This document shows positions 139-14,386 of a stretch of DNA of 64,000 bases, one piece after another. The stretch comes from an uncultured Elusimicrobium sp. GTDB lineage: Bacteria; Elusimicrobiota; Elusimicrobia; Elusimicrobiales; Elusimicrobiaceae. Position 1 is the first letter of the stretch; the number at the start of each line of letters is the position of its first letter. The notes beneath the pieces are model-generated. The model did not search any database. It had not been told where the DNA came from and worked only from the letters and a program-made list of their open reading frames with translations. The DNA lies in the NCBI GenBank assembly GCA_902794125.1, contig CADBFX010000007.1:1-64000 (forward strand), given 5' to 3'. The position numbers and the translations under genes were made by a program.

Positions 139-1116
139 ATGAAAATAAAAACTTTAGTTGTTAGTTTGCTTGCTATTGCAACCGGCACTGTTGTACAGGC
201 CAAAATTCACGAGAACGCCGGTACAAGTGCAGCGGCTTTCTTAAAAATTGATGCGGGTGCTCCCACGGCACAAGCGTTAGGGAATGCATATGTATCTATT
301 GCCGACGGACCGGAAGCCTTGTTTTGGAACCCTGCCGGTGCAGCCAGTGCCACTACGCGGGAATTGGGGTTTACCTATTTGGATTATTTACAAGGATATA
401 AAGCCCGCACATTAGCATATTTACAACCGATTGGTAAAACTATTATTGGTGTGTCGCTTAACTATATGGATATGAGCGGGTTTGATTTCCGTGGCGAACA
501 CGGTGAACTCAACCCCGAAATTGGTACCCCGGTGCGCAACTTTGTAGGCGGCTTGTCTATTGCGCGCGGATTTATTAACCAAAAGTTACAAATCGGCGGT
601 ACAGCTAAGTATGTAACGGAACGGTTATATAATGGTTCCGGGTACAACAATTATGATAACGTCGGTTTTGATGTGGGTGCCAAATTACGCTTAGTTAATT
701 GGTTGGGTTTAGGCGGTGCCTTAGTAAACATTGGCGACAAAGAAGAAATGCCTAAAGGGCTTCGCTTAGGGGCCGATTTAAATACCCGTTTTTTCACTAT
801 TTCCGGTGAGTATATGAAGTACCATGATGATAATGCCCGTTATGGGGTAGGGTTGGAAGTTCATATCCCGGAAGATATGCTCCAAGTAGCCCGGTTTGAT
901 TTACGCGTTGGTTATTACACGCGCGAAAATACGGGTGTAAACACCAAAGATTCGTGGGTAGAAAAAGTAGGGTTGGAAGAAACTTCCCGCGTGTCGTTTG
1001 GGTTTGGATTGTATAGTTCGGAACTGTTTGGATACGGAGCCTCGTTAGATTATGCTGTCACGCCGTTTGGTGCGTTGGGCACCTCGCAGCAGATCTCGGT
1101 GGCTGTCCAATTCTAA
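139..1116 (+). CDS. PorV/PorQ-like outer membrane beta-barrel protein
   Basis: 325 residues with a signal peptide (about 1-21, ending VVQA). The mature start contains AGAPTAQALGNAYVSIADGP and EALFWNPAG, the hallmark of the PorV/PorQ and UPF0164 branch of FadL-like barrels. Alternating hydrophobic strands follow, and the last residue is Phe, as in many outer membrane barrels. In Bacteroidetes PorV is the shuttle protein of type IX secretion; elsewhere the family is less well understood. A GGAGG lies about 16 bases before the ATG, which is far for a ribosome site, so the start is chosen by the signal peptide. The next gene starts 2 bases after the stop. Confidence 0.75.
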   Translation: MKIKTLVVSLLAIATGTVVQAKIHENAGTSAAAFLKIDAGAPTAQALGNAYVSIADGPEALFWNPAGAASATTRELGFTYLDYLQGYKARTLAYLQPIGKTIIGVSLNYMDMSGFDFRGEHGELNPEIGTPVRNFVGGLSIARGFINQKLQIGGTAKYVTERLYNGSGYNNYDNVGFDVGAKLRLVNWLGLGGALVNIGDKEEMPKGLRLGADLNTRFFTISGEYMKYHDDNARYGVGLEVHIPEDMLQVARFDLRVGYYTRENTGVNTKDSWVEKVGLEETSRVSFGFGLYSSELFGYGASLDYAVTPFGALGTSQQISVAVQF

Positions 1117-1118
1117 AT

Positions 1119-1301
1119 ATGGGGAAAAAAAGGATTTTATCGCTTAACAAAAAAGGTCAAACCGCGGTAGAATATATTATAGTGGCGGCCGGACTTTTTA
1201 CGGCGATTATTTCCTTTTACGTGTTATATTCCCGTTTTGTTCCGCAACAGTTTGACCAAGGGGCAAAACTGATTTTGTCGGAATATGAAGCCGGTAAATA
1301 G
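1119..1301 (+). CDS. Flp-type pilin-like protein (class III signal)
   Basis: A 60-residue protein with a short basic leader (about 12 residues), then KKGQTAVEYIIVAAGL, the class III prepilin pattern: cleavage after Gly, Glu at +5 with Tyr next, then a hydrophobic helix. It begins two bases after the stop of the barrel gene, so it is probably translationally coupled. Its hydrophilic tail is very short. It may be a minor pilin or a structural pilin of the Tad apparatus encoded downstream. No prepilin peptidase is present in the window to process it. Confidence 0.75.
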   Translation: MGKKRILSLNKKGQTAVEYIIVAAGLFTAIISFYVLYSRFVPQQFDQGAKLILSEYEAGK

Positions 1302-1335: not shown

Positions 1336-1563
1336 ATGAAATACATCGTTGCGTTGCAAAACCGCTTAGACATGCTCAAAGCGCAAGCCTTGGGGTGTCT
1401 AAAGAAAAAAGAAGGCCAAAACACGATTGAATACGTGCTCATGCTCGTAGTAGTCGTAGGTGTGGCTGGTATTGCCGGTGTAGCCATTAAAAAGTTCATG
1501 CCTGAACTTTTTGATAACGTCAAAACCAAAATTTTGGGTGGCGTGAACTCGGCTGCTGAGTAA
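1336..1563 (+). CDS. flp: Flp pilin, likely major pilin of the Tad pilus
   Basis: A 75-residue protein preceded by a strong AGGAGG site six bases before ATG. The roughly 26-residue leader ends KKKEG, followed by QNTIEYVLMLVVVVGVAGIA, the Flp/class III prepilin motif with Glu-Tyr at +5/+6. The mature protein would be about 49 residues, typical of Flp pilins. The strong ribosome site and the Tad assembly genes just downstream suggest this is the main pilin; that is inference. Confidence 0.85.
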   Translation: MKYIVALQNRLDMLKAQALGCLKKKEGQNTIEYVLMLVVVVGVAGIAGVAIKKFMPELFDNVKTKILGGVNSAAE

Positions 1564-1569
1564 GTCTTT

Positions 1570-2055
1570 ATGTCATTCATCAAGAAGCGTGGCGGGCAGG
1601 TGACGGCAGAATTGATGCTGATATTACCTGTATTTATGTTGATGATATTCTTTGTACTGGAATATGGCAACATCGCCTATCACACGATTATTGCTAACCA
1701 CGCTTCTTATGAATTTGCCCGTATCAGCTCGCTCGTAGGTGTTAAAAAACCGGGCGGCCGGCCGGACCGAACGGTAATGACCCAAAAGATTAATCAGGCC
1801 AAACAAAAAGTATTTGGCTCCAAGGCGGGGGGAATTACCGTAAAATTAGACGTGGAGACCACCGGTGTGGACCCCATGTATAAAAAACACCGCCATGAAG
1901 ATGTAGTAGTTACTGTGACGTATCCCGTACGCTTGATGTTCCCGGGCACCAGTTTCGTGCTCGCCAGCGACCCTCGTAAAGAGGGGATTCGCCGTATCAA
2001 AGCTGTTTCACGTATGCCGATTGAAAAGGCATATGTCAGTTCCGATACGAAATAA
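1570..2055 (+). CDS. tadE: TadE-like pseudopilin
   Basis: 161 residues. The N-terminus MSFIKKRGGQVTAELMLILP has a short basic leader, a Gly-Gly/Gln cleavage site and Glu five residues later, followed by a single membrane helix. This is the TadE-like arrangement. The remaining roughly 120 residues would lie outside the inner membrane. TadE proteins are minor pseudopilins needed for Flp pilus assembly. It starts six bases after the Flp gene stop without an obvious ribosome site, so coupling is likely. Confidence 0.8.
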   Translation: MSFIKKRGGQVTAELMLILPVFMLMIFFVLEYGNIAYHTIIANHASYEFARISSLVGVKKPGGRPDRTVMTQKINQAKQKVFGSKAGGITVKLDVETTGVDPMYKKHRHEDVVVTVTYPVRLMFPGTSFVLASDPRKEGIRRIKAVSRMPIEKAYVSSDTK

Positions 2056-2097: not shown

Positions 2098-2853
2098 ATG
2101 AAAAAGGGAATTTTTCTTCCGTTGGTAGTAGCTTTACTGGCCGCCATCGTTTATGCCATGATTGTTAGCAGCGCGGAAAAGAAGTTAAACGCGTCTAAAA
2201 ACATCAAACAGGTGTTTGTGCCGATTCGTGATATTAAGGAACGTGAAGTCATCAAGCGGGACTTTATTAAGCCTGTTCCCGTTCCGGCGGCTTATTTGCA
2301 AAAAGATGCCTTTACTTATACGACGGACTCTGATTTTAAATCCATTGAAAACGCCGTTGCGCGTATTCAAATCCCCAAAGGCAACCAAATTTCTAAGTAT
2401 GCTATTACGTCGCTCTCGCCGGAAGCTGGGCTTTCCAGCAAAATCCCGGTGCAGATGCGCGGTTACGTTATTAACGTGCCGATAGCCACGGCCAGCATGA
2501 TTAAGCCGGACGATAACGTGGACGTACTCTTAACGTTTGAAGCCCTGATGAAAACAGGTGCCCGCCAAAAAGTAGCCATTACGTTATTACAAAACGTAAA
2601 GGTGTTGGGTGTCGGTTCCGATTTAGGCCAAGGCTTAGATGCCAAAACTGCCGCTGCGATGAAGAGCAAAGAAGAAGACGGTGCTGCTTTTACGGATAGC
2701 TCCACCTTGGCTCTTTCGCTTTCGCCGCGTGATGCACAGTACTTGGCGCTGGCGCAATCGGAAGGGGACATTTCCGTTATCTTGCGTTCGCACGGGGATG
2801 TAACGAACTTCTTAATCGAAGTAGCAACTTTTGATAAATTATTTAACAATTAA
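2098..2853 (+). CDS. cpaB: CpaB/RcpC pilus assembly protein
   Basis: 251 residues. An N-terminal membrane anchor (about 4-25) is followed by an SAF-type segment (VFVPIRDIKEREVIKRDFIK, about 40-60) and the RcpC region with VINVPIATASMIKPDDNVDV, the typical description of CpaB. The protein acts in the periplasm and is thought to help the secretin channel. An AAGGAG site lies seven bases before ATG. Its position between tadE and the secretin gene is canonical for Tad loci. Confidence 0.88.
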   Translation: MKKGIFLPLVVALLAAIVYAMIVSSAEKKLNASKNIKQVFVPIRDIKEREVIKRDFIKPVPVPAAYLQKDAFTYTTDSDFKSIENAVARIQIPKGNQISKYAITSLSPEAGLSSKIPVQMRGYVINVPIATASMIKPDDNVDVLLTFEALMKTGARQKVAITLLQNVKVLGVGSDLGQGLDAKTAAAMKSKEEDGAAFTDSSTLALSLSPRDAQYLALAQSEGDISVILRSHGDVTNFLIEVATFDKLFNN

Positions 2854-2864
2854 TAGGATCAATC

Positions 2865-3611
2865 ATGATTAATACAAAATTTATTACAAAAGTTTCTTTA
2901 CTAACGTTACTGTCGTGTGTGCTTCTGCCGTCTGTGGCAGCGGCCAAAAAAACACGGCTGGTGGCGGTTAGTGCTGATGTGGTGGAAATCAGCGGTACCA
3001 TGCAAAGCGTAAAAGGTTTTTCATGGAACCAATTATTTGACTTTGAAGAAGCCACGATCCCCGGTATTTTATCGCTCGGTGAATTTGAACGTAAAACAGC
3101 CGTTACGACTCGTCTTCGTTTGATGGAAACCGAAGGCCGGGCTCAAGTGCTTTCTAACCCGAAAATCGTTACCGCGTCCGGAAACAGTGCAAAAATTTCT
3201 GTCGGTGGTAAAGTGCCAATACCGATTGTAAACAACCAAGGGGTAGGTTCCCAGTTGGAAGAATACGGTATTTTGTTAAACGTGCTTCCCACTATCATCC
3301 CGGAACGCAATAACATCATTGATTTGCAAGTACAATTAATGGTTTCTACGGTGGACTATTCCCGAACCGTAGTCGTCGGGTCTGCTTCCGCGCCTTCTTT
3401 CAACAACCGCGAAGTGGAAACCCACGTGGAACTTAACAGTGGCGAAACGTTGGTGTTGGGCGGGTTGAAAAGCAGTGCCCGCAACGTGGCAGAAGACCGC
3501 GTACCTTTCTTGGGCCGCTTGCCGCTCATTGGTTTGTTCTTTAAGAACAAAGACGTTACCGAAGAGCAACGTTCGCTCTTCCTGTTCATTACCGTAGAAA
3601 TTGTAGAGTAA
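2865..3611 (+). CDS. cpaC: Minimal CpaC-like secretin domain protein
   Basis: 248 residues with a signal peptide (about 1-26). Almost the whole mature chain is the secretin C-domain: RAQVLSNPKIVTASGNSAKI, the VGGKVPIPI segment, LNVLPTII, ETLVLGGL and the closing VPFLGRLPLIGLFF. The N-terminal N0/N1/BON domains found in ordinary CpaC/RcpA proteins (usually 400 or more residues) are absent. It should form the outer membrane pore for the pilus. It follows cpaB by 11 bases with an AGGATC ribosome site. Confidence 0.85.
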   Translation: MINTKFITKVSLLTLLSCVLLPSVAAAKKTRLVAVSADVVEISGTMQSVKGFSWNQLFDFEEATIPGILSLGEFERKTAVTTRLRLMETEGRAQVLSNPKIVTASGNSAKISVGGKVPIPIVNNQGVGSQLEEYGILLNVLPTIIPERNNIIDLQVQLMVSTVDYSRTVVVGSASAPSFNNREVETHVELNSGETLVLGGLKSSARNVAEDRVPFLGRLPLIGLFFKNKDVTEEQRSLFLFITVEIVE

Positions 3612-3618
3612 TTTTGTT

Positions 3619-5961
3619 ATGGCAGAAGAAAACGAATCCCAAAAAACAGACGCAAAAATTATTGCTTTTGCCGGGCCGAAGGAAGGCGCAGGGAAAACAA
3701 CCCTGGTGCTGAATTTGGCATTGGGGTGGGCAGGCATTCAGAAGCGCCCGGTGCTTATTGTACCGTTGGACCCACTCGCCCGCCAAGAGCATAGTTTTTA
3801 TTTGGATATTGCTAATCCCGTCAGTGTGGCCGATTTGTTGCAAGTGTTAGGGAATACCTCTATCGCGGTGGTAGGGGGGTTGTTGCGTGGTAAAATTTCC
3901 ATGTCCCAATGGGGAGTGGGTTTATTGCCGCTGGGAAATACCCGCGTGCAAGTGGCTTCCATTAGCCCGAAAATTTTAATTCCGATTTTATCCCGTCTTG
4001 CCCAAACCTTTGATATCTTTTTAGATGTAGATTCCAGTTTTCCTATGCAGGCGTTCTCGTTTGATATTGCTGACAAAATTTTCTGGGTATCCAACGCTAC
4101 GCGCACGCACATTAACTCCACCGTACAACTTTTTAACGATTACAAAGAGCAACGCTATCCGATGGACCGCGTGAGCGTGATTTGTAACGGTTATGATATG
4201 CCGGGTTCCATTCCTTACGAGGAAATGGAGCGTTTTTATGCACAATTAGGGCGTGAAGTGGATGTGTTTTTGCCGTGGGATGCCTCGGTAATGACTTCTT
4301 CTAACCAACGCGAAGTGGAAATTATTACCAATCCTCAATCGGAATGGGTAAAAGGATTGCGCTTGGTATTGGCTAAAATCCGTGATTTAAAACCGGCCCC
4401 GAAAGATTGGGAAGCGTCTGTTTCCGATGAAGAATTTACCCAAGCCGCCAAAGAAATTTGGTCGCCTATTCTGTTTGACGACGGCAAAGGCGGTGCGGTC
4501 GGCACGGACCACGTGGCCCTGGCGGAAGGGGAAGAACCCAGCAACAAAAATAAGATGTCGTTCTGGGACGATTTGAAACAAAAAATCCATAAAGAAGTGG
4601 TGCACACGCTGGAAATTGAACACATCGTTATTAGCGATGAAAGTACCGCCAGCGAGCAAACCCGCAAACGCGTGGCCGCGATTGTGGACGATATTTTACA
4701 GAAACAACCGAATTTGCAATTTTCACGTGATCAGCGCACCCGGTTTACGTCTGAATTATTAGACGAAATTTTAGGGTTAGGGCCGCTGGAAGTACTCATG
4801 AGGGACCCAGCCGTCACGGAAATCATGGTCAACGCCTTTGACCGTATCTTTATCGAACAAAAAGGTAAGTTGACCCTCACAAAATACAAATTTAGAAATA
4901 ACGAACAGGTGGTGCAGGTTATTAAACGTATTGTGGCCCCGCTTGGCCGCCGTATTGACGAATCTGTGCCGCTGGTGGACGCGCGCTTGAAAGACGGTTC
5001 CCGTGTAAACGCAATTATTGCGCCGTTGGCTGTTTCCGGCCCGACGCTTACTATCCGCCGTTTCTCCACCAAACCGTTCGGCCCGGAAGATTACTACCGT
5101 TTTGGTACAATCAGCCCGGAATGTATGGAATTTATTAAAAAATGCGTTAAGATCCGCAAGAACATTATTGTTTGCGGTGGTACCGGTACCGGTAAAACTA
5201 CGTTCCTAAACGCTATTTCCGGTTACATTGCCGATGACGAACGTATCATCACCGTAGAAGATACCGCGGAACTTCGTTTGCAACAGCCGCACTGGGTATC
5301 GCTGGAAAGCCGTCCGCCAAACGTAGAAGGAAAAGGGGCGGTAACAATTCAAGATTTAGTTAAAAACTGTTTGCGTATGCGTCCGGACCGCATTGTAGTA
5401 GGGGAGTGCCGCGGTGGCGAAGCATTGGACATGTTACAGGCCATGAACACCGGTCACGAAGGTTCTTTGACCACAATTCACGCCAACACTCCGCGCGACG
5501 GTTTATCCCGTTTGGAAGCAATGTGTATGCAGACCGGGGCCGATTTGCCGATTTTCGCTATCCGCGAAATGATTTCCTCGGCTGTAAACATGATTGTACA
5601 GTTGTCGCGTTTCTCGGACGGTTCCCGTAAAGTAACCTATATTACCGAAATGCACGGTCAAAAGGACGGGCAAATCCAATCTACCGATTTGTTCCGCTAT
5701 GTGCAGACCGGGGTAGATGAAAACGGAAAAGTGCAAGGTGTGTTTGCGCCTACCGGCAATTTGCCGACGTTTTATGAAGAATTTGCAGCTAAAGGACAGC
5801 CGGTTGATGAAATGGTATTTAAGAAAGGAGCGGTTCCGTTAGATGAAAACGGAGAGCCGGATTTAGCCGCTGTAAAGCGTTTGCAAGCCGGCAAGACGGA
5901 CACTCCACCGCCTCCTGTTCCGCCGGCTCCGAAACCGCCGCGTGCGCCGAAAGGGGCTTAA
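3619..5961 (+). CDS. cpaF: CpaE-CpaF fusion: MinD-like domain plus secretion/pilus ATPase
   Basis: 780 residues joining two proteins that are normally separate. Residues about 10-260 are a CpaE/MinD-like ParA-family domain with [10 protein letters not shown] (20-29) and later switch-like strands. Residues about 320-735 are a CpaF/TadA-type ATPase with Walker [10 protein letters not shown] (520-528), Walker [10 protein letters not shown] (about 589-597), and the His-containing [12 protein letters not shown] region. The tail is Pro-rich and probably flexible. CpaF powers Flp pilin assembly; CpaE directs the machine to a cell site. No frameshift or internal start separates the domains, so the fusion looks genuine. 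Confidence 0.9.
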
Positions 5962-5975
5962 TTGAGGTTTTGAAG

Positions 5976-7610
5976 ATGAATAAACATCGTTTATCTTGGG
6001 GAATTTTGGTAGCAATAGGGCTTTTGGTAACAGGAGCCCTGGCTCCGTTGCAGGCCCGCGAACTGAGTGCCAAAGACCGCACAAAAATTCGCTGTGCCCA
6101 AGAAAAGATGCGTATTTTGGCAGATATTTTTAACGTTAAAGTTCCTAATGATCAAAAGGTGTATGAGTATCCGGGTGAATGTACCAGCAACGGTCAACCT
6201 CGTAAATACAAAATGCCGGAATGGTTTGCCGACGAACTGGCCCGCATGGATAAAAACAAAATCGTTTTTATTAAAACCGAAAACCAAACATACAGCGAAG
6301 TGGATCTGTGGCGCCAGGCTTTTTCCAACGTATATGTTTTCTTGGAACGGGCCGATAAGTCGTTAGACCCCAATCAACCCATCGTGTTGGACCAACTTTC
6401 CCGCGGGTATGTAGGAAACCGCATCAACTTAATGGCCACGGTGGACCGTTTAAACAAAGATTTACTGCGTAATAACCAACTCTTTGTGATGAAGGACAGC
6501 ATGGACGGTCGGGCGCGTTCTATGTTATCTACCTTTGAATTAATTAACAGCGAATTTTTTAGTACGATTGAATCTTTTTCCAGCCCGCTTAAACAGCGCG
6601 AAAATAAATATCGTCAGTCTGTAATGGCGGTTGTGGTATTGGCTAACCATTTATTTTCACAATTTATGGGAGCGCCTATCCCCACTTATCCGCCGGACCC
6701 GAAGATTTATGTAACTACCCGTGCCGACAAAGCCTTTAGTACGTTACTTATTTTAATTGGCTCTTTCTTGGCTGGGTTTGCCGTCTATTTATTACTGGAA
6801 AACAAGCGCGACCGCATGTTGGAAATCTGGGCGGACTACCGGGAAAAAAGTGTGGTGTGGGCCGAAGATTTCAACCGCCAATTCGTAACGATTGATATTA
6901 AATATATCGTGTTTGGTACAATAGCCGTATTTGCCGTGTTTGGGTTAGTGATGGGGCTTATGGCTGGTGGTTTTTTGGGCGTGCTGCTTTTCTTAATTGT
7001 CTTATTTTTCGGGGCAGTGCTTAGCGTGCGGATGCCGGGAGCCGTGTTGGATGCTTTAAAAAAGAGTCGCGGTAAACGCATTAACGCCCAATTGATGGAT
7101 TCGCTGATTTTGCTTTCCAACTCGCTTCGTTCGGGTATGGATATTGTGCAAGGATTTGAACTTGTTTCGCGCGATATGACGCCCCCGATTTCCGACGAAT
7201 TTGGCTTGGTAGTAAAAAACTACCAATTAGGAACTCCCTTTGAAAAAGCATTGGATGGTCTGTCCGAGCGTGTGGAAAGCCGCATGCTTTCGTATATTAT
7301 TAAAGCTATTATTATTCAGCGCCAGGTCGGTGGTAACTTAACCGTTATTTTTGCGCGCTTAGTAGAAAACATCCGCGAAGAAAGTAAACTGGAAGAAAAG
7401 TTGCAAGCTATGACGGCACAACAGAAAATCCAGTCTATCGTGGTCAGTATCATGCCGTTTGTGATGATGCTGGTTATGTTTATGTTTAACCCGGATCAAA
7501 TGCTCTCGTTCTATACCAGCCCGCTGGGACTTTGTATCTTTATGTTCTGTGTGGTGTGGATCGGTATCGGTATGAAAGTACTACAGAAAATGGGCGAAGT
7601 GAAGGTGTAA
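5976..7610 (+). CDS. tadB: TadB-like inner membrane platform protein with exported N-terminal extension
   Basis: The ATG at 5976 is preferred over a TTG at 5970 because GAGG at 5964-5967 is eight bases before it. The 544-residue protein is much longer than ordinary TadB (about 300). It starts with a signal-peptide-like segment (about 1-29) and a roughly 220-residue hydrophilic region with CAQEKMRIL and YPGEC, which would be periplasmic. Membrane helices follow, then a T2SSF domain (about 370-500) with LLSNSLRSGMDIVQGFELV and IIIQRQVGGNL. The C-terminal half is the TadB platform for pilus assembly. The extension is not recognised. Confidence 0.82.
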   Translation: MNKHRLSWGILVAIGLLVTGALAPLQARELSAKDRTKIRCAQEKMRILADIFNVKVPNDQKVYEYPGECTSNGQPRKYKMPEWFADELARMDKNKIVFIKTENQTYSEVDLWRQAFSNVYVFLERADKSLDPNQPIVLDQLSRGYVGNRINLMATVDRLNKDLLRNNQLFVMKDSMDGRARSMLSTFELINSEFFSTIESFSSPLKQRENKYRQSVMAVVVLANHLFSQFMGAPIPTYPPDPKIYVTTRADKAFSTLLILIGSFLAGFAVYLLLENKRDRMLEIWADYREKSVVWAEDFNRQFVTIDIKYIVFGTIAVFAVFGLVMGLMAGGFLGVLLFLIVLFFGAVLSVRMPGAVLDALKKSRGKRINAQLMDSLILLSNSLRSGMDIVQGFELVSRDMTPPISDEFGLVVKNYQLGTPFEKALDGLSERVESRMLSYIIKAIIIQRQVGGNLTVIFARLVENIREESKLEEKLQAMTAQQKIQSIVVSIMPFVMMLVMFMFNPDQMLSFYTSPLGLCIFMFCVVWIGIGMKVLQKMGEVKV

Positions 7611-7613
7611 TTT

Positions 7614-8504
7614 ATGAATAGTCTTGCATTTTCCTTAGGGCTTAATTTACTCTTGGCAGCCGGCATGTTCGGTATGTTCGTGGGTGTGTTTGCGCTTTTG
7701 GCCCCGAAAGAGAAAAAAGAAGAACTCATGGACGTGGCCGTTCGGCGTTTTAAATCTACGTCCAGCTTTGCCCGCTTAAAACCGGAAGAAAAATTTTTAG
7801 ATAGGCTGGCCGTTTTCTGCTTACGTAATTTCAATTTGGAATCTAAATTAGAGCAGATGCACCTGCTGTTAGGCAGCCCGGATAACCCACAACCGGTGGA
7901 CATCTTGTATACCAAGGTAATTGCTGCGTTGGTTATTCCGGCGGCACTGATGTTGTTGTTCCAATCTTTGTGGATGGTGATTTTTGTGCCGGTATGTTTT
8001 TATCTGCCGGATTTGCTGATTTTAAGTAAAATTCAAAAACGCCAAGCCGAAATTTTGGGCAACTTTTCTACGACGGTGGATTTGGCTGCCTTGATTATTG
8101 AATCCGGTTTGGATTATTTAACCGCTTTTGAAAGAATTATTAAAATTGCCAAAGAAAAAACGATTTTGGAAGAAGAATTGGAAAAAACTATTAACGAAAT
8201 TAAACTGGGTTATTCCCGCCGCGAAGCGTTGGAACGCTTTTCTGCCCGCACCGGCGTACAGGAAGTACGTTCTTTGGTGGGATTGATTATTCAATCCGAC
8301 GAACTCGGTACCAGCTTAGTGGACTTGCTGCGCAACTTCTCATCGGACTTGCGCTCGCGCCGTTTAAGCCGCGCAGAGAAATTGGCCGCGCAAGCTTCTA
8401 CGAAGATGTTGTTTCCGATGTTTATGTTCATCTTCCCGACGATTTTTATTTTAATTTTATCGCCAATGATTATGGGCCTTGTCAGCGGCGGGATTGGTTT
8501 TTAG
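7614..8504 (+). CDS. tadC: TadC-like inner membrane platform protein
   Basis: 296 residues, three bases after tadB. It has an N-terminal membrane helix, a paired central helix region (about 100-130), a T2SSF domain with STTVDLAALIIESGLDYLTA and IIQSDELGTSLVDLL, and a closing helix pair. This is the standard TadC arrangement, the partner of TadB in the inner membrane assembly platform. The length is typical. Confidence 0.88.
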   Translation: MNSLAFSLGLNLLLAAGMFGMFVGVFALLAPKEKKEELMDVAVRRFKSTSSFARLKPEEKFLDRLAVFCLRNFNLESKLEQMHLLLGSPDNPQPVDILYTKVIAALVIPAALMLLFQSLWMVIFVPVCFYLPDLLILSKIQKRQAEILGNFSTTVDLAALIIESGLDYLTAFERIIKIAKEKTILEEELEKTINEIKLGYSRREALERFSARTGVQEVRSLVGLIIQSDELGTSLVDLLRNFSSDLRSRRLSRAEKLAAQASTKMLFPMFMFIFPTIFILILSPMIMGLVSGGIGF

Positions 8505-8514
8505 AGGAATAGCT

Positions 8515-10026
8515 ATGAAAAAAACAGTTTCCTTGGTGAGTTTTTTACTGATGTTGGGTGTGGCGGCGCAAGCGGCTACATCTTCTGCTAATACGTTTCG
8601 CAAAGAAATCCCGGTTCGCCAACATGGCAAAGAAGAAGGGATGTTCTTGGATTTAGGTAAAATTTCGTTGGGAACTTTAAATGATGTAGAAGAAAAGAAA
8701 CAGTACCTTTCTACCGTTCAATTGGAAAAGCAACGTATCCAAAATTATACGCTTCGTATGGTGTATGATAATGCTTATCAGTTGTATAAGGTGGGGGATT
8801 ACCAACGTGCACAAGAAATGGCACAAACGATTTTAAGCATTGATCCGAATTTTAAGCAAGCCCAAACCTTGGCCCGCCAAGCCCAATACATGGGAACGTA
8901 CGGCACTACTTCGGAGGCGCAAGTAATTGAAGCTAAATTCCAAGAAGCATCTCGCTTATATGACAGTGGCCGCTTGGTGGAAGCGAACGATAAATTAAAT
9001 GAAATTTTAACCATTCAACCCGGTAATTTGCAGGCACAATCGTGGAAACAAAAAATTGATGAGGAAATCGCCCGCGAATATGCCCGCCGCGGGGACGTGG
9101 CTGCTAAAAACGGCAATTATCAAGAAGCATTAGAAGCTTGGTATAATTCGCTTTTGATGCGTAAAGATGACCCGAAATTGGTAACCAAAATTGCCGATGC
9201 GGAAAACAAATTGCGCAAACAGCAAGTGGAAGAATCCATGCGCCAAGCGTTGGAATTTTATAACAAAGGGCAATACGTGGAATCGTATGCGGTATTTGAA
9301 CGTATTACGAAAATCCAACCCGGTGATGCACGGGTACAAAAATACATGTCCCAACTTAAAAACGAAATTGCCGCCGGTTATTATAATGCAGGCAACAAAT
9401 CTTACAATGCTAATCGTTTTGATCAAGCCATCGCTTATTGGAATAACGCCAAAAAGTGGGGGGCCGATGCGCATACGATTGATTGTTTGATTAAGAATGC
9501 CCGCGATGCAAAAGAAAATCGCATTCGTATCAAACAAGAGCAAAAAATTATTGAAACTAAACGCGCTGAACAAGCCGCTATTCAGGCTCAGGAAGAAGCG
9601 AAAAAAGCCGAAGAGGAAGCCATCGCTAAGCAGCAAAAAGAAGACGAAGAAGAACAGATTGAAACGGTGGACGTGATTGACACGATCCCGGGGGCTACTC
9701 CCGGCAGTTCAACAGTGGGTGGCTCAACGGTGGGCGGATCTGGTTCAGTGCCCGGAGTGCCCGGAGTGCCCGGAAGTACAGCCGGCGGAAACGGCCCGGC
9801 GGGGCGTGAAGGTAGCGAAGCTTTACCGACCATTGGCGGTTCCATGACCCGGGTATCTGCTGAAGCCAGCGCTGCTTCTCGTGCCAAATACATTGAAGGA
9901 TTGGACGCTTTTAACCAAGATGATTATGAACGCGCCCGCAACGCGTGGAACGTGGCCAAACAATTAGATCCGGGCAACACGGATGCTGATTTGGGCTTAC
10001 GTAAAATTGAAGAATTATTGAAATAA
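8515..10026 (+). CDS. Exported TPR protein with Gly/Pro-rich linker
   Basis: The start is ATG 8515, with AGAGGAA just upstream overlapping the tadC stop; an upstream in-frame start would lack the signal peptide at the N-terminus. The protein has 503 residues: signal peptide (about 1-20), several TPR-like helix pairs (LYKVGDYQRAQEMAQTIL, LYDSGRLVEANDKLNEIL, FYNKGQYVESYAVFERI, YNANRFDQAIAYWNNA), a charged AEEEAIAKQQKEDEEEQ helix, a low-complexity Gly/Pro segment with VPGVPGVPG, and a last TPR. A scaffold role like that of TadD is likely from its place in the Tad locus. TPR proteins are hard to assign further. Confidence 0.75.
   Translation: MKKTVSLVSFLLMLGVAAQAATSSANTFRKEIPVRQHGKEEGMFLDLGKISLGTLNDVEEKKQYLSTVQLEKQRIQNYTLRMVYDNAYQLYKVGDYQRAQEMAQTILSIDPNFKQAQTLARQAQYMGTYGTTSEAQVIEAKFQEASRLYDSGRLVEANDKLNEILTIQPGNLQAQSWKQKIDEEIAREYARRGDVAAKNGNYQEALEAWYNSLLMRKDDPKLVTKIADAENKLRKQQVEESMRQALEFYNKGQYVESYAVFERITKIQPGDARVQKYMSQLKNEIAAGYYNAGNKSYNANRFDQAIAYWNNAKKWGADAHTIDCLIKNARDAKENRIRIKQEQKIIETKRAEQAAIQAQEEAKKAEEEAIAKQQKEDEEEQIETVDVIDTIPGATPGSSTVGGSTVGGSGSVPGVPGVPGSTAGGNGPAGREGSEALPTIGGSMTRVSAEASAASRAKYIEGLDAFNQDDYERARNAWNVAKQLDPGNTDADLGLRKIEELLK
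9748..9774 (+). repeat. Three 9-bp tandem repeats (GTGCCCGGA)
   Basis: Three exact copies encode Val-Pro-Gly units inside the low-complexity linker of the TPR protein, preceded by Gly-Ser-Thr-Val repeats. The repeat number could vary between strains. Confidence 0.85.
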
Positions 10027-12490: not shown

Positions 12491-14386
12491 ATGAAGAAAA
12501 AAAGATTGAGAGGTTTATTTTTTAATGCAATCTTGGCACTGAGTTTAATTTCGCTGGTGCCGGTGTTCTTTATTGGCTTTCACGTGATGCGGGTGGATAG
12601 CCGCATCTTACAAAACGAAATTCTGCAAAAGCAACGCACGGTAGTCGGCCGCTTGTCGTCGGTACTTCATTCTCACATTACGCATACCGCTCAATTGTTT
12701 TCCGTCTTTGCGGATTTACATACTGATTTCGGCGGGCATGAATTTGTCCACCAGCAAGATTTAACTTATCTTCGCACCCGCAATCCTTCTATTGTTTATT
12801 TGGCCGTGTTGGACCAAAATGCCCGGGCAGTTATTTCTTCCGGCGAGTCTGTTTTAGGGGACCAATTCCCGGAATTATGGCCGCAAATTAAGGAGTCTTC
12901 CTTCCAAGCAGGCGAAGAATTCTTAGGTAAAGTTTACCGGATAGAGAACCAGTTATTTACGTTGATGACTTTCCCGTTGCGCCAGCATTTGGAAGATACG
13001 CACGTACAAGGAGTTTTGCTGGCAGAACTTGACTTGCGGGAAATGGGCCGAACCCTCGCCCAAGCCTATCCGTTGGACATGGAAGCATGGGTCGTTTCGG
13101 GGGACGGGGATGTTGTTTCTTACAGCGGCGCTCCGCGAGAATTTTTATCGGAAACCACGCAAGCCTTATTAGAACGAACTTCTGCTATTCAAGCCCAATT
13201 AGGAGTTTCGTCTAGCGGAAAAGTTACATTTCCGGATTCGGGTTCGTGGCTGGTAACGTCGGCCAATTTATTTTTGCCGGGTTGGAAAGTGTATGTCGCC
13301 CAACGGGCCAATGTCGCCACACAACTATTGCGGGAAAGCACCGTTAATTCGGTGTGGGATGTAGTATTTATTTTTGCGGTTATGTTGTTGTTTGTGGTAG
13401 GGGTCAGTTATTTAGTTATTATTCCCATTATCCGGCCGCTAGACCGTTTGCGCCGCGCTATATTGCGTTTGCGGGAAACGGAGGGGGAACTTATCCGTCG
13501 GGAAGATGTGGAAATTCCCAATAACGAAATCGGTGATTTATCGGAACTATTTGTAGAAATGTCAGAGGCTCTTTATTCTCGTCGGAAAGAATTGCTGCAG
13601 GTACAGCAAAAATTGGCTTCTTCCAACCAGGATTTGGAACAACGGGTGGAAGAGCGTACCCGCGAATTAAAAGAGACTACGAACGAACTAGTCAAAACGG
13701 AACGGCTGGCGGCTATCGGGCAGATGGCTTCTATTATCAGCCACGAAATACGCAATCCGCTGGCGGTAATTAGTAACGCTACGCGTTTAATTAAAATGCT
13801 GGTAGCTTCGCCGGATCCCAAAATTATCAAACAATTTGGCATTATTGAAGCGGAAATCAAACAAGCCAACAGCATTATCAGCGAAGTGTTAGGATATGCC
13901 CGCACCCGTGAACTAATGCTTAGCACGGTGGAAGTGAACAGTTATGTAAACGATTTATTAGCGGCCTACCCGTTACCGCCCGGCATTCATTTAGAGCGGC
14001 AAATTGACGAAGAATCTGTGCGGATGAAAGTAGATGCGGAAGAAATTAAACAGGCGCTTCGCAATATTATTTCTAACGCGGTAGAGGCGATGGGAACGGA
14101 GGGAACTTTGACGGTAGGAACCAAAGTGGGCCGCCGGGTAGTGTGTATTTTTGTAACAGATACCGGCCCGGGTATTACGGAAGAAATCCGTCGTAAAATG
14201 TTTGCGCCTTTCTTTACCACCAAAGCGCGCGGAACGGGGTTAGGGCTGGCAGTTGTGGGTAAAGCCATTAGCCGTCACCATGGGAAGTTGCTCATTACCA
14301 GCGGTCCCGGGAAAGGAACTTGTTTTCAAATTTATCTAAAAATTTATCGCAAAACAGGAGATACAGACTATGGAACAGCAAGTTAA
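12491..14386 (+). CDS. Membrane sensor histidine kinase (Cache-like sensor, HAMP, HisKA, HATPase)
   Basis: 631 residues. A first helix (about 9-32) is followed by a roughly 260-residue extracytoplasmic region resembling a double-Cache sensor and a second helix (about 290-318). A HAMP-like linker and a coiled coil come next, then HisKA with the phospho-acceptor in SHEIRNPLAVI (His about 418). The HATPase shows the N-box IISNAVEAMG, DTGPGI and GTGLGLAVV. It overlaps the next gene by 17 bases, so the two are co-translated. It probably phosphorylates the regulators encoded at 14370 and 15513. The ribosome site is weak. Confidence 0.88.
   Translation: MKKKRLRGLFFNAILALSLISLVPVFFIGFHVMRVDSRILQNEILQKQRTVVGRLSSVLHSHITHTAQLFSVFADLHTDFGGHEFVHQQDLTYLRTRNPSIVYLAVLDQNARAVISSGESVLGDQFPELWPQIKESSFQAGEEFLGKVYRIENQLFTLMTFPLRQHLEDTHVQGVLLAELDLREMGRTLAQAYPLDMEAWVVSGDGDVVSYSGAPREFLSETTQALLERTSAIQAQLGVSSSGKVTFPDSGSWLVTSANLFLPGWKVYVAQRANVATQLLRESTVNSVWDVVFIFAVMLLFVVGVSYLVIIPIIRPLDRLRRAILRLRETEGELIRREDVEIPNNEIGDLSELFVEMSEALYSRRKELLQVQQKLASSNQDLEQRVEERTRELKETTNELVKTERLAAIGQMASIISHEIRNPLAVISNATRLIKMLVASPDPKIIKQFGIIEAEIKQANSIISEVLGYARTRELMLSTVEVNSYVNDLLAAYPLPPGIHLERQIDEESVRMKVDAEEIKQALRNIISNAVEAMGTEGTLTVGTKVGRRVVCIFVTDTGPGITEEIRRKMFAPFFTTKARGTGLGLAVVGKAISRHHGKLLITSGPGKGTCFQIYLKIYRKTGDTDYGTAS

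What the first reader, a model, noticed from the sequence alone, without database searches (positions are those of the whole stretch)
3619..5961. Natural CpaE-CpaF fusion
Seen: one 780-residue frame carries a MinD-like domain with [10 protein letters not shown] and a full CpaF ATPase with GGTGTGKTT. Known: CpaE/TadZ and CpaF/TadA are usually separate proteins that cooperate in Flp pilus placement and assembly. The fusion fixes a 1:1 ratio and implies that the localisation factor sits on the hexameric motor.
Basis: partly seen in the sequence, partly recalled or inferred. Interest (0 to 1): 0.52.

Follow-up and report, generated by a model that had tools for sequence, protein, structure and literature searches.

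The report
Pilus motor fused to its positioner
Across much of one bacterial phylum, the motor that drives a sticky surface pilus and a helper protein that is elsewhere separate are made as one chain, which limits how the two can fit together.

Summary
Window 3619-5961 (+) is one 780-codon gene: a MinD-type domain (residues ~12-255), a linker, and a full CpaF/TadA motor (~315-740), inside a Tad (Flp) pilus operon of an Elusimicrobiota genome. It is not an assembly artefact. The same join is one frame in 87 of 93 same-genus loci and in representatives of 19 family codes across the phylum, at the same operon place. Every Tad locus outside the phylum that I could check has separate cpaE and cpaF genes. 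The N-domain is CpaE/TadZ-like, but two modules of ordinary CpaE are missing: the receiver (REC) domain and, by a crude test, the basic C-terminal membrane helix. Its ATP site is intact in the window and its class and lost in most other lineages; the motor's ATP site is kept in 35 of 35 rows. So TadZ here is probably a built-in motor subunit, six per hexamer, rather than a membrane-targeted locator. A published Caulobacter model places twelve CpaE around six CpaF, joined through REC domains; that cannot apply unchanged here. The mechanism is inferred. Structure prediction failed (mean pLDDT 34.5). Outside the phylum only plasmids were tested.

The parts
3619..5961 (+). Fused TadZ/CpaE-like + CpaF/TadA gene, 780 aa
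3652..4383 (+). MinD/TadZ-like domain, residues ~12-255
   Evidence: Pfam CbiA; profile matches to FleN, ParA, MinD and TadZ structures; hhalign 99.8% to plasmid CpaE
3673..3702 (+). Deviant Walker [11 protein letters not shown] with both lysines (K21, K26)
4384..4560 (+). Linker, residues ~256-314; lies where Caulobacter CpaF has its disordered NTD0; no strong basic amphipathic helix
   Evidence: NTD0/NTD1 boundaries from PMC11300603 (passages)
4561..5838 (+). CpaF/TadA motor, residues ~315-740 (three-helix NTD1, NTD2, catalytic domain)
5176..5202 (+). CpaF Walker [10 protein letters not shown]; lysine kept in 35 of 35 fused rows
1119..1301 (+). Flp-type pilin candidate 1 (60 aa, GQTAVEY)
   Evidence: sequence; matched at the same position in relatives
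1336..1563 (+). Flp-type pilin candidate 2 (75 aa, GQNTIEY)
1570..2055 (+). TadE
2098..2853 (+). CpaB/RcpC
   Evidence: TIGR03177 above cut-off
2865..3611 (+). Short secretin (248 aa)
5970..7610 (+). TadB, about 250 residues longer at its N-terminal side than TadB of other classes
7614..8504 (+). TadC
8479..10026 (+). TPR protein, TadD-like by position

Best explanation
An ancestral cpaE-cpaF gene pair was joined, probably once, early in Elusimicrobiota. The product is a Tad pilus motor in which each CpaF subunit carries its own TadZ (MinD-fold) domain, so a hexamer carries six. Shown: one reading frame, conserved across the phylum at the cpaE-cpaF place in the operon; the receiver domain absent; the motor's ATP site kept everywhere while the TadZ ATP site is kept in the window and its class but lost in most other lineages. 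Inferred: the tether replaces the recruitment that REC and the membrane helix give to free CpaE; the six TadZ domains form a collar on the N-terminal face of the motor, in the window possibly as up to three ATP-bound MinD-type dimers, and help seat the motor under the TadB/TadC platform; the ATP cycle of this collar is dispensable in many lineages.
For: Single frame in 87 of 93 same-genus loci and in 34 phylum representatives of 19 family codes. Operon order ...cpaB-(secretin)-FUSION-tadB-tadC in the phylum against cpaE-cpaF-tadB-tadC in plasmid Tad loci. The N-domain profile of the other classes hits the CpaE of 8 of 9 plasmid Tad loci at 66-119 bits (not that of L180), against 45.6 for the genome's own Soj; hhalign to plasmid CpaE is 99.8% (window class) and 100% (other classes). 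N-domain tree: 33 fusion rows are one side of a branch, support 100/99. CpaF tree: 9 plasmid rows are one side, 96/95. No stand-alone CpaE in the own genome. TadZ Walker A intact in 17 of 35, CpaF Walker A lysine in 35 of 35. A strong basic amphipathic 11-mer follows the MinD domain in 7 of 8 plasmid CpaE but in 1 of 35 fusion linkers. In situ work on Caulobacter places CpaE in contact with CpaF (PMC13170226, passages).
Against: No structure: AlphaFold gave mean pLDDT 34.5. Outgroups are few and plasmid-borne; the window-class N-domain is diverged and a lone Soj falls inside CpaE, so two independent fusions are not excluded. The CpaF tree joins the window class with the plasmid CpaFs against the other fusions, which allows a single origin only if the root lies on the plasmid branch. 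The membrane-helix threshold was chosen after seeing the values. ATP-site loss is not special to the fusion: 6 of 8 plasmid CpaE lack the P-loop lysine too. A CpaE gene could lie in the missing ~12% of the genome.
Confidence: 0.6

Rival explanations
1. The N-domain still works as a true polar or membrane locator that carries the motor to the assembly site.
For: CpaE/TadZ proteins are localisation factors in other bacteria (PMC6668835 and PMC13170226, passages); the window's ATP site is intact.
Against: No receiver domain and no strong basic amphipathic helix in the window's protein; in f12 the ATP site is gone, yet the domain is kept.
Confidence: 0.2
2. The N-domain is a passive relic: the genes were joined by loss of a stop codon and the domain is kept only because its removal would disturb the motor.
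For: In several plasmid Tad loci cpaE and cpaF lie in the same frame, in two of them with a single stop codon between the open frames (L187, L188). The ATP site decays and the f12 domain no longer matches Pfam or the PDB.
Against: It is kept across the phylum; the class-wide consensus stays strong (59% mean column identity), and even the f12 version is conserved within its family (61%). Phylum paralogs without the domain exist, so it can be lost.
Confidence: 0.15
3. Two or more independent fusions, one in the window's class and one or more elsewhere.
For: The CpaF tree groups the window's class with plasmid CpaFs (97/91) against the other fusions; the linkers of the two groups do not match (the linker profile ZA_mid hits only the window's class).
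Against: The N-domain tree puts all 33 fusions on one side of a branch, 100/99; the operon position is the same.
Confidence: 0.25

Closest known systems
CpaF/TadA, Tad pilus motor ATPase (solved Caulobacter CpaF, PDB 9e24, 8rkd)
   Same: Residues 293-720 align with the solved motor, E 4.8e-116; Walker A kept; followed by tadB and tadC.
   Different: Carries a MinD-fold domain where Caulobacter CpaF has a disordered NTD0.
CpaE/TadZ (stand-alone CpaE of plasmid Tad loci; E. rectale TadZ 3fkq)
   Same: Same MinD-type core and same operon place next to cpaF.
   Different: Fused to CpaF; no receiver domain; no clear C-terminal basic amphipathic helix.
FleN/FlhG and MinD site-determining ATPases
   Same: Best solved-structure matches of the window-class N-domain profile (FleN E 2.5e-12).
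   Different: Not in a flagellar or division context; fused to a secretion motor.
Archaeal FlaH beside the FlaI motor
   Same: Secondary ATPase beside a related hexameric motor, compared with TadZ in PMC6668835 (passages).
   Different: Compared by analogy only; no sequence test here, and FlaH is a separate protein.

Membership tests
CpaF/TadA | TadA-type T2SSE ATPase with Walker A and three-helix NTD1 | tested here: met
   below the TIGR03819 cut-off, but aligns to solved CpaF over query 293-720
CpaF/TadA | Encoded beside tadB and tadC in a Tad locus | tested here: met
CpaF/TadA | Hexameric motor activity | not testable with these tools
   needs biochemistry or cryo-EM
CpaE/TadZ | MinD/ParA-fold ATPase core related to CpaE | tested here: met
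CpaE/TadZ | N-terminal atypical receiver domain | tested here: not met
   MinD domain starts at residue 12; Pfam Response_reg found in 3 of 6 plasmid CpaE scanned, not in the window
CpaE/TadZ | C-terminal membrane-targeting amphipathic helix | tested here: inconclusive
   7 of 8 plasmid CpaE against 1 of 35 fusions by a crude moment test with a threshold set afterwards
CpaE/TadZ | Polar or membrane localisation | not testable with these tools
   needs microscopy
Tad pilus locus | Flp pilin, TadE, CpaB, secretin, motor, TadB, TadC together | tested here: met
Tad pilus locus | Prepilin peptidase | tested here: met
   none named among the operon genes scanned; one Peptidase_A24 elsewhere in the genome (C20)

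The most novel reading that the evidence does not exclude
TadZ is in essence a motor subunit of the Tad machine: it can work at 1:1 with CpaF, without a receiver domain, without its own membrane anchor and, in many lineages, without an ATP site. The twelve-to-six CpaE:CpaF arrangement modelled in Caulobacter would then be a lineage-specific elaboration and not the core design.
Probability: 0.35. Interest if true: 0.68.

Novelty: new variant of a known kind. Interest (0 to 1): 0.5.

Why it matters
How TadZ acts on the Tad motor is open, and the in situ Caulobacter model rests on docking six CpaE dimers around a CpaF hexamer, with contacts through REC domains (PMC13170226, passages). A phylum in which the two are one chain, REC is absent and the ATP site is optional gives a natural experiment on stoichiometry, contact and the need for ATP turnover. 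It also offers one purifiable protein for structure work.

Tried and rejected
Assembly artefact: rejected. Structure prediction from 29 same-genus sequences gave pLDDT 34.5 and was not used; the second job was not spent. Outside the phylum only plasmids were tested: of 32 records whose match covers at least 80% of an f13 fusion (L151), 24 are annotated as separate genes and in the other 8 no single frame spans the match; the search kept only the 5000 best records. ATP-site decay as a hallmark of the fusion: rejected, because plasmid CpaE show it too. Membrane helix in 18-residue windows: only L153 beat 95% of shuffles. A first count of same-genus frames used too strict a motif (51 of 93) and was redone with profiles. 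Rows dropped: three of eight stand-alone CpaF paralogs fell out of the CpaF tree because the motif used for trimming did not match; the two f6 rows were left out of the N-domain tree; L180's putative CpaE matched no profile and is not among the 8 plasmid CpaE compared. G096 and G165 were not inspected at sequence level. Papers: searches listed none whose title or abstract start names such a fusion; I did not read all listed papers. The two 2012 TadZ papers are not held.

Full report
What is there. The frame at 3619-5961 (+) is a single 780-residue ORF. Pfam finds a MinD/ParA-type domain at 15-230 and a T2SSE ATPase at 386-666. NCBIfam places 358-676 in the TadA family, below that model's cut-off. 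Residues 293-720 align with the solved Caulobacter CpaF, E 4.8e-116. Caulobacter CpaF has a disordered NTD0 (1-79) followed by a three-helix NTD1 (80-149) (PMC11300603, passages); from that alignment the MinD domain and linker occupy the NTD0 position. The gene lies in a Tad operon: two Flp-like pilins, TadE, CpaB, a short secretin, the fusion, TadB, TadC and a TPR protein.

Not an artefact. In the same genus, 87 of 93 fetched loci hold both halves in one frame; five are cut by contig ends and one (L074) is split by a frame break in the N-domain. Over the phylum sample, 195 of 247 genomes match at E <= 1e-30 (62 of 76 genera); the other 52 were not examined. I read frames for 30 loci of 34 chosen genomes: 29 have a long region upstream of CpaF in the same frame, and one (L131, f25) is CpaF alone. 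Thirty-four fused ORFs from 19 family codes were aligned. In two of these rows (f6: L171, L172) the N-region is not shown to be TadZ-like.

What the N-domain is. Profiles from the window's class match FleN, ParA and MinD structures and, more weakly, E. rectale TadZ 3fkq (E 2.9e-5). Profiles from the other classes match ParA-family 3ea0 best (E 4.9e-30) and do not list 3fkq at E 0.01. Against ORFs of nine plasmid Tad loci, the other-class profile hits the CpaE of eight at 66-119 bits and misses that of L180; the own genome's Soj scores 45.6. Profile-profile comparison with the eight plasmid CpaE gives 99.8% for the window's class and 100% for the others. In f12 the region has no Pfam match worth the name and no PDB match; it aligns to the other-class N-domains at 97% over 171 columns, while nine unrelated profiles and the window-class profile all stay under 1%, and plasmid CpaE reaches 49%. 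The f12 assignment therefore rests on one profile link.

What is missing. Canonical CpaE has a receiver domain before the MinD core: in the plasmid proteins scanned, the Pfam core starts at residues 131-235 in five of six (no match in L180), and Pfam sees Response_reg in three of six. In the window the core starts at residue 12 and no receiver domain is found. After the core, 7 of 8 plasmid CpaE have a basic amphipathic 11-mer with moment >= 0.43, against 1 of 35 fusion rows. The threshold was set after seeing the values, so this is a lead and not a proof. No second CpaE was found in the own genome, which is 88% complete.

ATP sites. The N-domain P-loop is intact in 17 of 35 rows: the window, 15 of 16 fetched rows of its group, and L149 (f11), whose signature lysine is Q. 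It is degenerate in 18, among them L140 inside the window's own order and all four f12 rows. The CpaF lysine is kept in 35 of 35. The state needs at least two changes on the tree. Loss alone is not peculiar to the fusion, since 6 of 8 plasmid CpaE lack the lysine as well. The window's domain probably binds ATP; this was not tested.

History. In the N-domain tree the 33 fusion rows are one side of a branch (100/99) against 8 CpaE and one Soj; the Soj falls inside the CpaE rows, and several branches are long. In the CpaF tree the nine plasmid rows are one side of a branch (96/95), but the window's class joins them against the other fusions (97/91); five stand-alone phylum paralogs sit among or below the other fusions, and three more were dropped. 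If the root lies on the plasmid branch, one fusion event is the simplest account, and two events are not excluded. The step is easy: in several plasmid loci cpaE and cpaF lie in register, in L187 and L188 with one stop codon between the open frames; these loci were picked by one-frame matches, so the share is biased. Of 32 plasmid records with a match over at least 80% of an f13 fusion, none showed a single frame across both halves.

How it most likely works. A published in situ model of the Caulobacter Tad machine docks six CpaE dimers around a CpaF hexamer, suggests contacts between dimers through REC domains, and has CpaE touch the base of CpaF in the piliated state (PMC13170226, passages). 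A fusion with no free CpaE gives at most six TadZ domains per hexamer and no REC contacts. I infer a motor-borne TadZ collar whose tether replaces recruitment. In the window the intact ATP site allows up to three MinD-type dimers; elsewhere the collar must do without ATP binding of that kind. No step of this mechanism has been shown experimentally.

Known or new. The Tad system in Elusimicrobia is in print (PMC6668835, passages), and Tad-like loci are reported for Endomicrobium and Elusimicrobium minutum (PMC8809381, passages). My searches showed no paper naming the fusion in title or abstract start, in an open-access library only. I rate it a new variant of a known kind.

Noticed in passing
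window 2865-3611; L135-L149, L153, L155, L158, L169, L173: The secretin is very short (248 aa here, about 224-290 aa in most relatives) against 644 aa in a plasmid Tad locus (L132); Pfam sees only the secretin domain. A phylum-wide mini-secretin without N-domains may be as unusual as the fusion.
   Followed up: partly
window 5970-7610; L135-L148: TadB is about 500-570 aa in the window's class against ~290 aa in other classes; the extra N-terminal part starts like a signal peptide and matches no family.
   Followed up: partly
L155:16087-17301, L158:4518-5564, L169:4974-6029, L170:4995-6059, L173:2756-3994: Several lineages outside the class have a stand-alone CpaF-like ATPase without the TadZ domain, next to a secretin; a possible second motor.
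   Followed up: partly
L140:6947-9181: Inside the window's own order one fusion has lost both Walker A lysines of the N-domain (GPREGVGATS), an isolated loss.
   Followed up: yes
L171, L172 (f6): Fused-length CpaF with an unassigned N-region and an altered motor P-loop (GNSG[SA]GKT).
   Followed up: no
window 139-1116: A PorV/PorQ-type outer membrane protein gene sits directly before the Tad operon and keeps this place through the class.
   Followed up: no
window 12491-14386: A sensor histidine kinase gene lies downstream of the Tad operon, possibly its regulator.
   Followed up: no
PDB 3ea0 (ParA-family ATPase): Best structure match of the other-class N-domains, with a degenerate P-loop in the printed alignment; it may itself be a CpaE core.
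   Followed up: no
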